The notes beneath the pieces were generated by a model, which did no database searches, had not been told where the DNA came from, and was given only the letters and a program-made list of their open reading frames with translations. The position numbers were made by a program, and so were the translations under genes. This document shows positions 42,941 to 63,069 of a DNA stretch of 64,000 nt, piece by piece; the first letter of the stretch is position 1, and each line of letters starts with the position of its first letter. Origin of the DNA: Candidatus Synechococcus spongiarum LMB bulk15M (GTDB lineage Bacteria > Cyanobacteriota > Cyanobacteriia > PCC-6307 > Cyanobiaceae); contig MWLD01000069.1 of the NCBI GenBank assembly GCA_002018045.1, positions 1 to 64,000 of the forward strand, written 5' to 3'.

Positions 42941-43810
42941 ATGCCATCCCCTAAGACGGGTGACGTCGTCACGGAGACACGTCAATTATTTACTGTGTTG
43001 ATCCTGAGTCGTCGTCAAAATTGTGATACCTCTTATATACGCAATCGTATTGTTCAAATGAACAGCCGCCTGGCTCAGCAGGTGGCTAGTCGTATGATAC
43101 ATCGTTGCAGTCTGGACTTTGACGATCTGGTCCAGATTGGCCATCTGGGATTAATCAAGGCCGTGGAACGCTTTGATCCAAACACCGGCTATGCCTTCAG
43201 TTCTTTTGCCGTTCCGCTCATCCGTGGTGAGATTCTTCATTATCTCAGGGACCATGTGAGTCCCATTCGTGTTTCACGCCGCTTGCTGGAACTCCACTCC
43301 CGTGGCATCAAACTCCAGGAGACCATGGCAAACCGCTCGGGCCGATACCCCACGGAGTCGGAGCTTTGTGCAGCACTGGAGGTCACCCCGGTGCGGTGGC
43401 AACAGGCCTGTCAGGCGAAGCGTACGCTACGGCTCTCCAGCCTGGATCAACGTGTCCTTGGCCCGGACGACGAGGGCGAATCCCCACGCCTGGTGGATCT
43501 GCTGTCCGCACAACTCAAAGAGGATGACAACTCCGAGCTTTATGCCCACCTGTACTACTTCATCGGGCGCCTGGGAGCGGATGCACAGCGGCTCCTCAAG
43601 TGGCGTGTTTGCGATGGGCTGAGCCATCGGGAGCTGGCGCAGCGGGAAGGCGTCAGTATGCGGGTGATCAGCCGACGGCTCCATGGCATTCTGCAGCAGC
43701 TTCAGCATCAACTCGGACCCATGGTGACCGAGCATCCCTACCCGCGCCCAGCGCGGCGCCGTTGCAACTCAGTGCCAGCCCATCCCCACCGCAGCGCCCA
43801 TGGCCAGTAG
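42941..43810 (+). CDS. sigF: Group 3 sigma factor (SigF type)
   Basis: 289 residues. Region 2 is clear (FDDLVQIGHLGLIKAVERFD, GYAFSSFAVPLIRGEILHYL), then region 3 and a C-terminal helix-turn-helix (LSHRELAQREGVSMRVISRR). The lack of region 1.2 and the RGEILHYLRDH pattern place it with SigF/SigB-type alternative sigmas. In cyanobacteria SigF controls pili and some stress genes. The first 40 codons are A+T-rich and less conserved, so ATG 43058 could be the start. The end overlaps the convergent VTE6 homologue by 42 bases. Confidence 0.88.
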   Translation: MPSPKTGDVVTETRQLFTVLILSRRQNCDTSYIRNRIVQMNSRLAQQVASRMIHRCSLDFDDLVQIGHLGLIKAVERFDPNTGYAFSSFAVPLIRGEILHYLRDHVSPIRVSRRLLELHSRGIKLQETMANRSGRYPTESELCAALEVTPVRWQQACQAKRTLRLSSLDQRVLGPDDEGESPRLVDLLSAQLKEDDNSELYAHLYYFIGRLGADAQRLLKWRVCDGLSHRELAQREGVSMRVISRRLHGILQQLQHQLGPMVTEHPYPRPARRRCNSVPAHPHRSAHGQ

Positions 43811-57231: not shown

Positions 57232-58098
57232 TCACATCCTTCGCACGGCACTACGGAGTTTGCGTAGTGCGACTTGGTTGATCTGTAAAGCGTTCTCGGG
57301 GCTGATGGCTAGCTGTCTTGCAATATCCCGGAACGTGACGCGCGGACTCAAGCAGTAGCGTTGCCGCACCACAGCCCATTCCTGGTTCCTCAGCCGAGCA
57401 GTGCCGATGAGCGTGGCCAGGTAGTCGCTCTCCATGGCCTGCATCAGTTTGTCCATGGGCTGGGGGCGCTCGTCAACAAGGAGATCAAGGGGAATCGGGT
57501 CTCCATCAGCATGCATCTGCTGCTCAAGGCTCACCGTGTCGATCAGTTGGGCAGTGCGCCGTAGTTGACGGATCTGGTCCCGGGTCTCTTTGCTGACCTC
57601 AGCCACTTCCGCTACCGTGGGGGATCGCCCCAGCGCGTCGGATAACCGCTGCACCGTGACCGCCAGGCGAGCCAGGCGATCCGCCAAGTGTAACGGCAAA
57701 CGAATGGTGGAGGCTTTCTGGTTGATGGCCCGTTGCAAAGACTGTTTAATCCACCAGTAGCTATACGTGCTAAAGCGATAGCCCTTGGAAGGATCAAATT
57801 TCTCCACCGCCCTCTGCAAGCCCATTGCACCCTCTTGAACAAGATCCTCCAGGGGAAGGCCACGGGCCTGATATTTTTTCGCGAGATGGACGACAAGTCT
57901 GAGATTGGATTGAATCATTTGCTCCCGAGCCTGAAGCCCTGCCTCACGCAACTTGGTTGGAGCAGACTCCGGCCCACCGGGGTAGCTCCGCCATGTATGG
58001 ACGATCTCGCCCAGACCGGTTTCCTCCTCGGAGGTCAACAGCCGAAACTGCGAAATCCTCTGAAGCATCCATGTCAAGGTATTGGTTCCAGCGGTCAT
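57232..58098 (-). CDS. Group 2 sigma-70 factor with altered region 4.2
   Basis: 288 residues. Regions 1.2-2.4 are normal (QSNLRLVVHLAKKYQARGLP, EDLVQEGAMGLQRAVEKFDP, KGYRFSTYSYWWIKQSLQRA), as is region 3. In region 4.2 the recognition helix reads ISPENALQINQVALRKLRS where sigma-70 has V-x-RERIRQIE-x-x-ALRKLR: two of the key -35-contacting arginines are gone. It may read a different -35, rely on extended -10 promoters, or be losing function. It lies 88 bp downstream of a paralogous sigma gene with an intact helix. Confidence 0.9.
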   Translation of the reverse strand: MTAGTNTLTWMLQRISQFRLLTSEEETGLGEIVHTWRSYPGGPESAPTKLREAGLQAREQMIQSNLRLVVHLAKKYQARGLPLEDLVQEGAMGLQRAVEKFDPSKGYRFSTYSYWWIKQSLQRAINQKASTIRLPLHLADRLARLAVTVQRLSDALGRSPTVAEVAEVSKETRDQIRQLRRTAQLIDTVSLEQQMHADGDPIPLDLLVDERPQPMDKLMQAMESDYLATLIGTARLRNQEWAVVRQRYCLSPRVTFRDIARQLAISPENALQINQVALRKLRSAVRRM

Positions 58099-58186
58099 TG
58101 GGCTTGACTACTGTCTTGTGGCAGGAGAACGGGACCAGCTTCCATCTCTTTGCCCTTCCCCATGTCGTTGTGCCGGGTCTCGGGGA

Positions 58187-59200
58187 TCATGGCTTGTACT
58201 GCTTCAGTCGTTCCAGGTCATGGCCGCAATCTGCGGTGTGTGGATGGGGAGGAGAGGGTTCAAGCTGTGACACGCTCTTGATCAACGGGCGCGGTGCGGC
58301 AGATTGCCGTTTCACTGTACGGGGTTGGCAATGGGGGTATCCGCCACGGGCGGCCCGCCGTAGCTTGCGCATGGCGTTCTGCTCGATCTGACGTATACGC
58401 TCGCGGCTGAGGCCCAGGCTGCCGGCAATCCCTTGAAACGGCAGAGGTTGATTGCGACAATGGCGCTGCTTGACCACCTGCCGCTCCCGTGCATTGAGAT
58501 TGGCAGTATCCATCAGCTTTTCTATCTGCGTCAACACATCCACCTGCTCCAAGGCATCCATGGGTTGAGTGCGCTCGTCTTCGATCAACTCGCCAAGGGA
58601 ACTGCTGTCGTCCTCGCTTTTTACCTGGGCATCCAGGCTGGCCCCGCTCAGCAACCGTGCCGTCTGCTCCAACTGGCGAATCTGCTCCTTGGTCTCGTTC
58701 ATGGCAAGACCCGCCTCCTCCAGGCTGGGGGACCTTCCAAGCTGTTGCGTGAGGCGTTGCGTGCAGGCTGTGAGTCGGGCCAGGCGATCCGCCACATGGA
58801 ACGGAAGGCGGATATTGGAAACCTGCTGGCTCACCGCCCGTTGCAGTGATTGTTTAATCCACCAGTAAGCATATGTACTGAAGCGATATCCGGTGGTGGG
58901 ATCAAACTTTTCCGCGGCCCGTTGCAGGCCAAAGCTACCCTCCTGAACCAGGTCTTCAAGAGGTAGGCCTCGGGTTCGGTATTTCTTGGCCAAGTGAACC
59001 ACAAGGCGAAGGTTGGAGCGAATCATTTCTCCCCGCGCCTGAAGACCTGCCTCTGAAACCTCGGCAGGGGCCTTCTCGGGTCCACCGGGGTAGTCCATCC
59101 AGGCACGCACAGTCCGCCCCAGATCCACCTCCTGATCAGGGGCCAACAGACTGGAACGGCCGATTCCGTCCAGCATCCAGCCAAAACAATCCCGTTTCAT
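58187..59200 (-). CDS. Group 2 sigma-70 factor with C-terminal extension
   Basis: 337 residues if ATG 59200 is used; GGAGG lies five bases upstream (ATG 59203 and TTG 59224 are alternatives). Regions 2-4 are typical (GYRFSTYAYWWIKQSLQRAV; recognition helix LSRERIRQIEQNAMRKLRRA). Unusually, some 50 residues follow region 4 (GGYPHCQPRTVKRQSAAPRP onward), rich in Pro, His and Arg. Tandem paralogue of the next sigma gene, probably from local duplication. Group 2 sigmas in cyanobacteria respond to light, nutrients and circadian signals. Confidence 0.9.
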   Translation of the reverse strand: MKRDCFGWMLDGIGRSSLLAPDQEVDLGRTVRAWMDYPGGPEKAPAEVSEAGLQARGEMIRSNLRLVVHLAKKYRTRGLPLEDLVQEGSFGLQRAAEKFDPTTGYRFSTYAYWWIKQSLQRAVSQQVSNIRLPFHVADRLARLTACTQRLTQQLGRSPSLEEAGLAMNETKEQIRQLEQTARLLSGASLDAQVKSEDDSSSLGELIEDERTQPMDALEQVDVLTQIEKLMDTANLNARERQVVKQRHCRNQPLPFQGIAGSLGLSRERIRQIEQNAMRKLRRAARGGYPHCQPRTVKRQSAAPRPLIKSVSQLEPSPPHPHTADCGHDLERLKQYKP

Positions 59201-59239: not shown

Positions 59240-59969
59240 CTACAGAGTCTTCTCGTCCAGGAACGCAGAGTATACATTTTCCTTCAAACTTGTCGCTACC
59301 GTTCTTGGTGCGAATGCCGTGTCGCCATTCGGCCATGCATGGTCTTGCCGCCCCTTACTGCGGTTGCAGCCGGAACACGGCAATTGCAAGTTGTCCGGGT
59401 GGTCCGTACCGCCAGGGAAATGGGTGTCGCATCCTGCACAGATGCCCTCCTGCTCACCATGGAGGCGATGACGGTGGGTTCGGTAGCTGGGCAGATGGCC
59501 AGGATCCGTGCCCTTGGGCGGGGCATCCAAAGCGGTGGCGCCACCCCATGGACCCCGCTCTTCGGCAATGCGTTCATTCACCAGCTTGATGGCCAACGGC
59601 AAAAGATATCAATGCCTGCTTGTCGCTGGAGTCGGTCTGCCGCCACCAGGGCGGTCGCACAACCACGGAAGGGATCCGGCGCCGAGTTCCCCGGTTTGAA
59701 CCGGCTCTGACGATGCGATTCAACTCGGCCGGTTCACCGTGCTCGCACACGTCCACGTCATCCAGGGTCCAGGCATCCTTGAATGCGGCTGCGGCGGATG
59801 TACTGCCGATGGGGGCTTCGTAGTGGCGGTTGGAATTGAAGGAAGGGTCCAGGACAATCAGGTGCATACAGGCGGAGTTCATACCCCGCATGACGTCCAG
59901 GTTTTTGCCAGCCCGGACGTTGCCACTGTCGACGTGGACATGGGCATCAACAGTTGACCTTGCGTACAT
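59240..59969 (-). pseudogene. DNA methyltransferase with HNH domain, heavily deleted
   Basis: The 5' part (frame from 59969) reads NVRAGKNLDVMRGMNSACMH then LIVLDPSFNSNRHYEAPIGS and AAFKDAWTLDDVDV, the start of beta-class N4/N6 DNA methyltransferases whose catalytic motif is DPPF; here it is DPSF. The middle is missing. A shifted frame then gives DPFRGCATALVAADRLQRQ (SAM-binding motif I) and PLAIKLVNERIAEERGPWGG. The HNH-like tail follows (HGEQEGICAGCDTHFP, then GGTDHPDNLQLPCSGCNRSK), itself lacking the segment with the catalytic His. Frameshifts and two deletions make this a dead gene. Confidence 0.85.
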
Positions 59970-61916: not shown

Positions 61917-62323
61917 GTGGAAAGGAGGCGAGGCGACCGCGGCACGACCGAGTCCGCTCGGTGCGTGCTGAGGAAAGTCCGGGCTCCCCCATGGCCAGGC
62001 CTGCTGGGTAACGCCCAGTGCGGGTGACCGTGAGGATAGTGCCACAGAAATACACCGCCGATGGCCGCGGCTTTTGCCCAGGCACAGGTAAGGGTGCAAA
62101 GGTGCGGTAAGAGCGCACCAGCAGCATCGAGAGGTGCTGGCTCGGTAAACCCCAGCCGGGAGCAAGGCAAAGAACAAAGGTTGGCCATGTGCCCGTTCTG
62201 CTTAGACATGCCGCTTGAGGCCTGTGGTAACACAGGTCCTAGACAGATGGTCGCCCCTGGAGAGGGAGCCATTCCATGGAGATCTCCCCAGGAACAGAAC
62301 CCGGCTTATGTCCTGCTTTCCAC
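61917..62323 (+). ncRNA. rnpB: RNase P RNA (type A)
   Basis: Conserved elements in order: GAGGAAAGTCCGGGCTCC (CR-I), ACAGAAATACACCGCC, GTAAGGGTGCAAAGGTGCGG and GTAAGAGCGCACCAGC (CR-II/III), CGGTAAACCCC, and CAGAACCCGGCTTATG near the 3' end. The outer helix P1 is formed by GTGGAAAGGAGG at 61917 and TCCTGCTTTCCAC at 62311-62323. It is the ribozyme that matures tRNA 5' ends. The 3' end overlaps the rnc start codon at 62308. Confidence 0.96.
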
Positions 62324-63069
62324 CCTCTTCCCTCAGCCCTGGGCGCCAGGCCCTGCTCCAGGCCCTGCTCCAGCGCCTCGGCCTGGAGTCCCTCCGCGAC
62401 GATCCAGCGCTTGCGTTGGTGGAGGAAGCCCTGACCCACCGCTCCGCAGGGTTGGGATTGGACAACGAGCGGCTGGAATTTCACGGGGATGCCGTGCTCC
62501 GCCTGCTGGCCGCCAGCCTGCTGCGTCATCACTGGCCGGATCTATCCGTGGGTGAGCTGTCCCGCCTGCGCAACCAGTTGGTGAGCGACCGGGAACTGGC
62601 TCGTCTGGGCCAGGCCATTGACCTGCAACCCCTGATCCATATGGGGGCGCAAGCCCGACGCGACCCAACGGCAACGACACCCATCCTGGCGCGAAGTTGT
62701 GAAGCCTTGCTCGGCGCCCTCCATGAAGCCCTGCGGCTTGCTGGAGGGGACGGGTTGCGGGAACTACTGTATCCATGGCTGAAGTCCCACTGGGTGCCGC
62801 TGGTCCAGGAGTTGCTGAGCCACCCTGAGCGCCATCACTGGAAAACAGCGCTCCAGGAATGGAGCCAGGCAGCCCATAGCTGCTTGCCCACATACGTCAC
62901 CGAAGAGGTGGAGCCGGTCCACGGTCACCCCCAGCGGTTTGCAGCCCGGGTGTTTGTGGCGAACGAGCTGTTGGGCCATGGCCGCGGTTCGTCTCGTCGC
63001 CAGGCAGAGCAGGACGCTGCCGCCCAGGCCTGGGCGGCGCTCCATAATCCGCCAGCCTCTCCGGACTGA
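62308..63069 (+). CDS. rnc: Ribonuclease III
   Basis: 253 residues from ATG 62308, the only standard start that includes the N-terminal helices (SPGRQALLQALLQRLGLESL). The first signature reads NERLEFHGDAVLRLL, with His where Leu is usual; Glu54, Glu57 and Asp61 are kept. In the second site, ARSCEALLGAL, Arg129 stands where the metal-binding Asp normally lies, before Glu132. A double-stranded-RNA-binding domain follows (ANELLGHGRGSSRRQAEQDA). A 12-bp tandem duplication (GGCCCTGCTCCA) lies near the start. Confidence 0.9.
   Translation: MSCFPPSSLSPGRQALLQALLQRLGLESLRDDPALALVEEALTHRSAGLGLDNERLEFHGDAVLRLLAASLLRHHWPDLSVGELSRLRNQLVSDRELARLGQAIDLQPLIHMGAQARRDPTATTPILARSCEALLGALHEALRLAGGDGLRELLYPWLKSHWVPLVQELLSHPERHHWKTALQEWSQAAHSCLPTYVTEEVEPVHGHPQRFAARVFVANELLGHGRGSSRRQAEQDAAAQAWAALHNPPASPD

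What the first reader, a model, noticed from the sequence alone, without database searches (positions are those of the whole stretch)
57232..58098. Sigma factor with a rewired or failing -35 recognition helix
Core-binding and -10 regions are well kept, but region 4.2 has Pro, Asn and Leu where arginines contact the -35 element in sigma-70 (ISPENALQINQ against VTRERIRQIEA). The neighbouring paralogue at 58187-59200 retains the normal helix. The pair may show division of labour after duplication, with one sigma using altered -35 or extended -10 promoters.
Basis: partly seen in the sequence, partly recalled or inferred. Interest (0 to 1): 0.5.

Follow-up and report, generated by a model that had tools for sequence, protein, structure and literature searches.

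The report
Duplicated sigma factor with rebuilt reading helix
A genus of cyanobacteria that includes sponge symbionts carries a duplicated RNA-polymerase specificity factor whose usual DNA-reading helix has been replaced by a different sequence that is preserved across species, so it probably switches on a different class of promoters rather than being a dying gene.

Summary
The gene at 57232-58098 (-), called X here, is an intact 288-aa sigma-70 protein. Its region 4.2 helix has Pro267, Asn269 and Leu271 where sigma-70 has R584, R586 and R588. Its tandem neighbour Y keeps all three arginines.

X sits beside Y in 10 of 10 genomes of the genus (in one, across a contig break). R588 is replaced by Phe, Tyr or Leu in 10/10 X proteins and R584 by Pro in 9/10. 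Both arginines are kept in 56/56 evaluable other sigmas compared.

This does not look like decay. No X copy has an internal stop, and the 20-codon helix segment has dN/dS about 0.15 (likelihood ratio 42.9 against 1). AlphaFold starts the helix at the new proline, where Y's helix starts at the arginine. E585 is kept in 8/10. X's dN/dS is 2.4 times Y's overall, but region 4.2 is not specially relaxed.

Most likely X is a maintained group-2-like sigma that reads the -35 box weakly or differently and relies on -10/extended -10 contacts or activators. Promoter specificity is inferred; no promoter data were found. It is a new variant of a known kind. In passing, the T440 equivalent is Gln in X and Y, which may shift -12 preference.

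The parts
57232..58098 (-). X: divergent group-2-like sigma-70 factor, 288 aa
   Evidence: open frame; Pfam r2, r3, r4 above cut-off; 10/10 genomes of the genus
57238..57300 (-). X region 4.2 recognition helix, residues 267-287, beginning at Pro267
   Evidence: AlphaFold2 helix H267-287; 10-residue block pLDDT 91, 89 and 75; 20-codon segment 264-283 omega 0.152
57298..57300 (-). codon of Pro267, equivalent of sigma-70 R584
   Evidence: Pro in 9/10 X, Arg in 1/10 X; Arg in 56/56 evaluable non-X
57286..57288 (-). codon of Leu271, equivalent of sigma-70 R588
   Evidence: Phe 6, Tyr 3, Leu 1 of 10 X; Arg in 56/56 evaluable non-X
57733..57735 (-). codon of Gln122, equivalent of sigma-70 T440 (-12 contact); altered in X, Y and Y-type relatives
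   Evidence: Gln in 28/30 and His in 2/30 of the clade; Thr in 33 of 37 other sigmas
58187..59200 (-). Y: paralogue with the standard region 4.2 helix, directly upstream of X on the same strand
   Evidence: R584 and R588 equivalents kept in 9/9 evaluable Y
58099..58186 (-). 88-bp gap between Y stop and X start; no conserved promoter block seen by eye in the alignment, so an operon is possible
   Evidence: sequence; alignment of the gap in the genus

Best explanation
X is a working, selectively maintained duplicate of a group-2-like sigma factor. It binds core polymerase and opens the -10 region, but its sigma-4 domain no longer reads the second half of the -35 box (the -31 contact made by R584). 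It therefore uses promoters with weak or no standard -35 element, with the energy coming from -10/extended -10 contacts and probably from activators that sit where the -35 box would be; Y serves the standard sites. Shown: sequence, distribution, conservation, purifying selection, predicted intact helix. Inferred: core binding (from conserved region 2.2), promoter class, use of activators, division of labour.
For: X has no internal stop in 10/10 genomes and lies next to Y in all ten (in G007 inferred across two contigs). The helix segment has omega 0.152 in X and 0.080 in Y, both far below 1 (LRT 42.9 and 31.4). Region 4.2 of X is 0.228, not higher than the rest of X at 0.300 (LRT 1.53). A shared new sequence replaces the old one: [SKR]P[EDA]x[AT][FYL][QR][IVM][NH]Q in 9/10, together with Trp241 in the same 9. 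The helix starts at Pro267 in X and at the equivalent Arg274 in Y in AlphaFold models. Region 2.2 residues D403, Q406 and E407 and the aromatics F427, Y430, W433 and W434 are kept in 10/10 X. The X helix (265-283) has net charge +2 or +3 in 9/10 (+5 in one) against +5 in 9/9 Y. R584 and R588 mutants alter -35 specificity in E. coli sigma-70 (PMC2613000 passages). Cyanobacteria have -10-only promoters, and Synechocystis SigD but not SigA recognised a -10-only psbA promoter in vitro (PMC2758279 section 35). A strong -35 consensus is missing in S. elongatus and Prochlorococcus MED4 (PMC3219970 passages).
Against: I found no transcript, protein or promoter data for X. Its dN/dS is 2.4 times Y's overall (0.290 against 0.120). 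E585 and most Q589 are kept, so a specific -35 readout may survive. The Y425 equivalent, a melting-region aromatic, is His in 3/10 X. X's extended -10 residues do not differ from Y's. Overall sigma-4 net charge is about the same in X (+6 to +8) as in Y (+7 to +10), so DNA binding by sigma-4 may persist. R588 has no specific base contact in the crystal structure (PMC2613000 passages). The dN/dS fits use my own one-ratio model, one assumed topology and long trees (2.1-5.0 substitutions per codon), so synonymous saturation is possible.
Confidence: 0.52

Rival explanations
1. X reads a different, specific -35 element. The rebuilt helix (Pro at N1, kept Glu at the -33 contact, a new aromatic at R588, Asn at E591) contacts new bases, so X has its own regulon with its own -35 box.
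For: The replacement is a shared sequence under purifying selection (omega 0.152), not random loss. E585 is kept in 8/10. Whole sigma-4 net charge is maintained. An R584A change in E. coli sigma-70 shifts -31 preference to A:T (PMC2613000 passages). RpoH duplicates in alphaproteobacteria were proposed to differ through region 4.2 and the -35 motif (PMC4843759 passages).
Against: Positions 269 (N, H, D, K) and 272 (Q, R) vary among orthologues, which a strict new base code would resist. No regulon motif is known.
Confidence: 0.27
2. X is decaying after duplication: -35 recognition is being lost under relaxed selection.
For: X has a higher omega than Y in every region tested, with region 4.1 of X highest at 0.418. 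Sigma factors erode in strict endosymbionts (PMC8321222 section 17).
Against: 0 of 10 copies have an internal stop. The X helix has omega 0.152, clearly below 1. Region 4.2 is not more relaxed than the rest of X (0.228 against 0.300, LRT 1.53). X proteins of the other nine genomes are only 65-80% identical to the window's, long enough for a neutral gene to break.
Confidence: 0.08
3. X is a competitor or decoy: it occupies core polymerase, drives little itself and so tunes output of Y or SigA.
For: Core-binding residues kept while -35 reading changed; in tandem with Y, downstream on the same strand; the Y425 equivalent is His in 3/10.
Against: The other four -10 melting aromatics checked are kept in 10/10 X, which a pure decoy would not need.
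Confidence: 0.08

Closest known systems
Cyanobacterial group-2 sigma factors (SigB/C/D/E-type and the marine M-type), NCBIfam TIGR02997 as best match
   Same: regions 2, 3 and 4; X and Y both match TIGR02997 best
   Different: both fall below its curated cut-off (242.6 and 263.5 against 384.5 bits); X lacks R584/R588; the clade has Gln (or His) at T440
Synechocystis SigD and SigB acting on type 2 (-10-only) promoters
   Same: precedent for a group-2 sigma that needs no -35 box (PMC2758279 section 35)
   Different: I did not compare their own sequences here; the 33 sigmas from this genome and its relatives that I compared all keep R584 and R588
RpoH1/RpoH2 duplicates of alphaproteobacteria
   Same: sigma duplication with region 4.2 as the suggested site of promoter divergence (PMC4843759 passages)
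   Different: there region 4.2 was under relaxed selection; here it is no more relaxed than the rest of X
Eroded sigma factors of strict endosymbionts (Hodgkinia, Carsonella)
   Same: T440 changed to Leu/Ile in several Carsonella strains, Q437 to His in Hodgkinia (PMC8321222 section 17)
   Different: those show domain losses; X keeps regions 2, 3 and 4 and is an extra sigma in a genome with a standard, apparently primary, sigma (L005, contig 65)

Membership tests
sigma-70 family | regions 2, 3 and 4 recognisable | tested here: met
   Pfam PF04542, PF04539, PF04545 above cut-off; best Foldseek hit is a sigma chain, E 2.3e-14, though whole-chain TM in the listed hits is only 0.34-0.40, presumably because the domain arrangement differs
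sigma-70 family | core-binding region 2.2 and melting aromatics of region 2.3/2.4 | tested here: met
   D403, Q406, E407, F427, Y430, W433, W434 equivalents 10/10 in X; Y425 equivalent Tyr 7, His 3; binding itself not tested
group-2 (primary-like) sigma factors of cyanobacteria | scores above NCBIfam TIGR02997 cut-off | tested here: not met
   X 242.6 and Y 263.5 against 384.5 bits; hence 'group-2-like'
group-2 (primary-like) sigma factors of cyanobacteria | region 1.2 present, region 1.1 absent | tested here: inconclusive
   PF00140 listed for Y only, 19.7 bits, under its cut-off of 22, and not listed for X at E <= 0.001
group-2 (primary-like) sigma factors of cyanobacteria | region 4.2 with R584/R588 equivalents for -35 reading | tested here: not met
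   X 1/10 and 0/10; Y 9/9 and 9/9 evaluable
group-2 (primary-like) sigma factors of cyanobacteria | dispensable for growth | not testable with these tools
   needs genetics

The most novel reading that the evidence does not exclude
X carries a new -35 reading code: a rebuilt helix with proline at its first turn, a kept glutamate, and an aromatic plus asparagine in place of Arg and Glu, together with a clade-wide Gln at the -12 contact. The X/Y pair would then be a natural two-state promoter code evolved by tandem duplication in a lineage that includes sponge symbionts.
Probability: 0.25. Interest if true: 0.6.

Novelty: new variant of a known kind. Interest (0 to 1): 0.42.

Why it matters
R584 and R588 are kept in every other sigma I compared (56/56 evaluable). 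A genus-wide, selected replacement of that helix beside a paralogue that keeps it would be a natural experiment on how promoter specificity changes after duplication, with one genome (G001) holding what looks like an intermediate helix. It also offers a test of why cyanobacterial promoters show little -35 consensus.

Tried and rejected
Decay: opposed by the lack of internal stops and by omega well below 1. Assembly artefact: the pair recurs in 10 assemblies; nth lies on the X side in 10/10, and the whole run nth-rseP-mqo-serS-nifU is seen in 7/10. In G002 and G007 the contig ends inside the run. In G005 only fragments of mqo match and about 1.2 kb beyond them matches none of the window genes searched (the window's own run).

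Timing of the duplication: bootstrap trees disagree. X is sister to the genus's Y without region 4 (93%) and outside Y plus G080 with the full length (96% for Y plus G080, 59% for the next node). AU tests on a reduced set reject none of three placements. I leave the timing open.

Degenerate DNA pattern for the new helix in the phylum: 1 of 386 genomes, in a 687-aa ORF that looks like a phycobilisome linker (my reading of the sequence), no sigma. The pattern does not cover the window's own helix (Leu instead of Phe/Tyr), and no other genome of the genus was in that sample, so there was no positive control. It shows only that the motif is rare.

Shared promoter upstream of Y or between Y and X: a short block upstream of Y, none seen in the gap. 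Upstream regions of 9 Y-type genes in other genera gave no common promoter by eye; the script did not place G100.

Literature: in nine open-library searches no listed title or abstract start names this pair; subscription journals are mostly not held.

The same-omega comparison used a coarse grid of omega values, so its LRTs are approximate; the one for Y is not relied on. The R4.1 and R4.2 spans overlap by 7 codons. AlphaFold models have modest global confidence (pTM 0.49 and 0.40), so only local helices are used.

Full report
WHAT IS THERE. The ORF at 57232-58098 on the minus strand (X, 288 aa) is an intact sigma-70 protein. Its paralogue Y (58187-59200 from the ATG) lies upstream on the same strand, ending 88 bases before X; the two are 55% identical over 282 residues. 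X region 4.2 reads ISPENALQINQ, as reported. The four best solved sequences, three of them cyanobacterial SigA-type by my reading, align there with TRERIRQIE. E. coli numbers (R584 for the first Arg of RERIRQ, and so on) are assigned from the recalled E. coli sequence together with the residue names in PMC2613000; the E. coli alignment itself was not printed. On that basis X P267, N269 and L271 stand at R584, R586 and R588.

WHERE IT OCCURS. The window lies in a 1.5-Mb, 84-contig genome, 74% complete. Three contigs titled Candidatus Synechococcus spongiarum have the same lengths as contigs of G002, G006 and G007 of the same genus, which names the lineage; other contigs of the genus are titled only 'Synechococcus sp.' or 'Prochlorococcaceae cyanobacterium', and I did not establish their habitat. 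X is found in 10 of 10 genomes of the genus, the other nine at 65-80% identity to the window's copy. Y lies beside it in all ten; in G007 the end of Y is on X's contig and the rest on another. nth lies on the other side of X in 10/10 and the whole run nth-rseP-mqo-serS-nifU in 7/10 (for the nine relatives, for the window). Of 400 family genomes searched with Y (at most five candidates scored in each), 36 have a match at E <= 1e-60: the 10 of this genus with two or more, and 26 others with exactly one. Ten of those 26 (E 2.1e-99 or better, 54-65% identity) are Y-type genes; none of the window's flanking genes was found near them in the 7 cases whose wider flanks I searched.

THE RESIDUES. Groups: X (10), Y (10, one cut off), Y-type from other genera (10), and other sigmas (18: four from this genome, 29 from related genomes and four). 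R584: Pro 9 and Arg 1 in X, Arg in 56/56 evaluable others. R588: Phe 6, Tyr 3, Leu 1 in X, Arg in 56/56. E591: Asn 9, His 1 in X; Glu 36 and Gln 1 of the 37 evaluable others. E585: Glu 8, Asp 1, Ala 1 in X. Q589: Gln 7, Arg 3. X also has Trp241 in region 4.1 in the same nine genomes that have Pro267. G001, the most divergent X, has SREKVFQVNQ: R588 and E591 already changed, R584 still Arg, which looks like an intermediate. In E. coli, R584 contacts position -31 and E585 position -33; R584 and R588 mutants have relaxed or altered specificity, but R588 shows no specific base contact in the crystal structure (PMC2613000 passages). So X has lost the -31 contact but mostly kept the -33 contact. The Y425 equivalent is Tyr in 7 and His in 3 X; the other four melting-region aromatics checked are kept in 10/10.

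FOLD. AlphaFold2 with 25 related sequences puts the last helix of X at 267-287, starting at the proline; in Y the equivalent helix is 274-294, starting at the equivalent arginine. Block pLDDT there is 91, 89 and 75 in X and 84, 80 and 45 in Y; global pTM is low (0.49, 0.40). Proline in the first turn after a serine cap is helix-friendly (general knowledge), so the substitution need not break the helix. The helix has lost two or three positive charges in 9/10 X, while the whole sigma-4 domain keeps a similar net charge.

SELECTION. For the 20-codon helix segment, X is 0.152 (LRT against 1 = 42.9; 0.156 without G001) and Y 0.080. In X, region 4.2 and the rest do not differ clearly (LRT 1.53, on a coarse grid). 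X is under weaker constraint than Y everywhere, but its new helix is conserved. Caveats: long trees, possible saturation, assumed topology, one Y truncated.

ORIGIN. Full-length and region-4-free trees place the X branch differently, and AU tests on a reduced set do not separate the placements. Duplication within or just before this genus is the simplest reading, not a proven one.

MECHANISM. Core-binding and most melting residues are kept, so X should form an active holoenzyme (inferred). With a weak or altered -35 contact, promoters must be selected by the -10 and extended -10 elements or by activators. Such promoters exist in cyanobacteria (type 2 promoters; SigD but not SigA used a -10-only psbA promoter in vitro: PMC2758279 section 35), and a strong -35 consensus is missing in S. 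elongatus and MED4 (PMC3219970 passages). X and Y share His and Asp at the two extended -10 contact sites, so X has not visibly gained extended -10 binding. A new -35 code is the main rival.

A CLADE-WIDE -10 CHANGE. The T440 equivalent is Gln in all X and Y and in 8 of 10 Y-type genes (His in 2). In the 37 other sigmas it is Thr 33, Glu 2, Val 1, Ile 1. T440I and Q437H in E. coli suppress a C at -12 (PMC2613000 passages), so this clade may prefer an unusual -12 base.

LITERATURE SEEN. PMC2613000, PMC3219970, PMC4843759, PMC6506613, PMC12879404 and PMC6081418: passages only. PMC2758279: section 35 and passages. PMC8321222: section 17 and passages. PMC11119718: abstract and passages. The passages seen of PMC6506613 and PMC6081418 do not discuss this sigma pair, and PMC12879404 has no occurrence of 'sigma' in its main text.

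VERDICT. New variant of a known kind; interest 0.42.

Noticed in passing
window 57733-57735 (X Gln122) and the equivalent codon in Y: The -12 contact residue T440 is Gln in X, Y and 8 of 10 Y-type relatives (His in 2), against Thr in 33 of 37 other sigmas: a possible clade-wide change in -10 preference.
   Followed up: partly
window 59269-59296 (-), upstream of Y: A short block (T, any, T, two variable, A) is aligned upstream of Y in all 10 genomes, about 70 nt before the ATG in the window. In the window it forms GCGACA-16-TATACT; in 8 of the other 9 the aligned second hexamer reads TCnAAn (TTGAAT in G007). Possible shared promoter of the Y-X pair.
   Followed up: partly
window 42941-43810 (+): A third sigma-like ORF, 289 aa, 29% identical to X over X residues 58-208; looks like a group 3 type, not tested.
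   Followed up: no
window 61921-62323 (+) and 62215-63069 (+): RNase P RNA (Rfam RF00010, 247.7 bits) overlaps the 5' part of the mechanical ORF that encodes RNase III, so the true rnc start is probably downstream of the ORF start.
   Followed up: no
window 59240-59602 (-): HNH-like ORF directly upstream of Y, under the Pfam cut-off (19.7 against 21.4 bits), with relatives beside Y in G005, G007 and G009.
   Followed up: no
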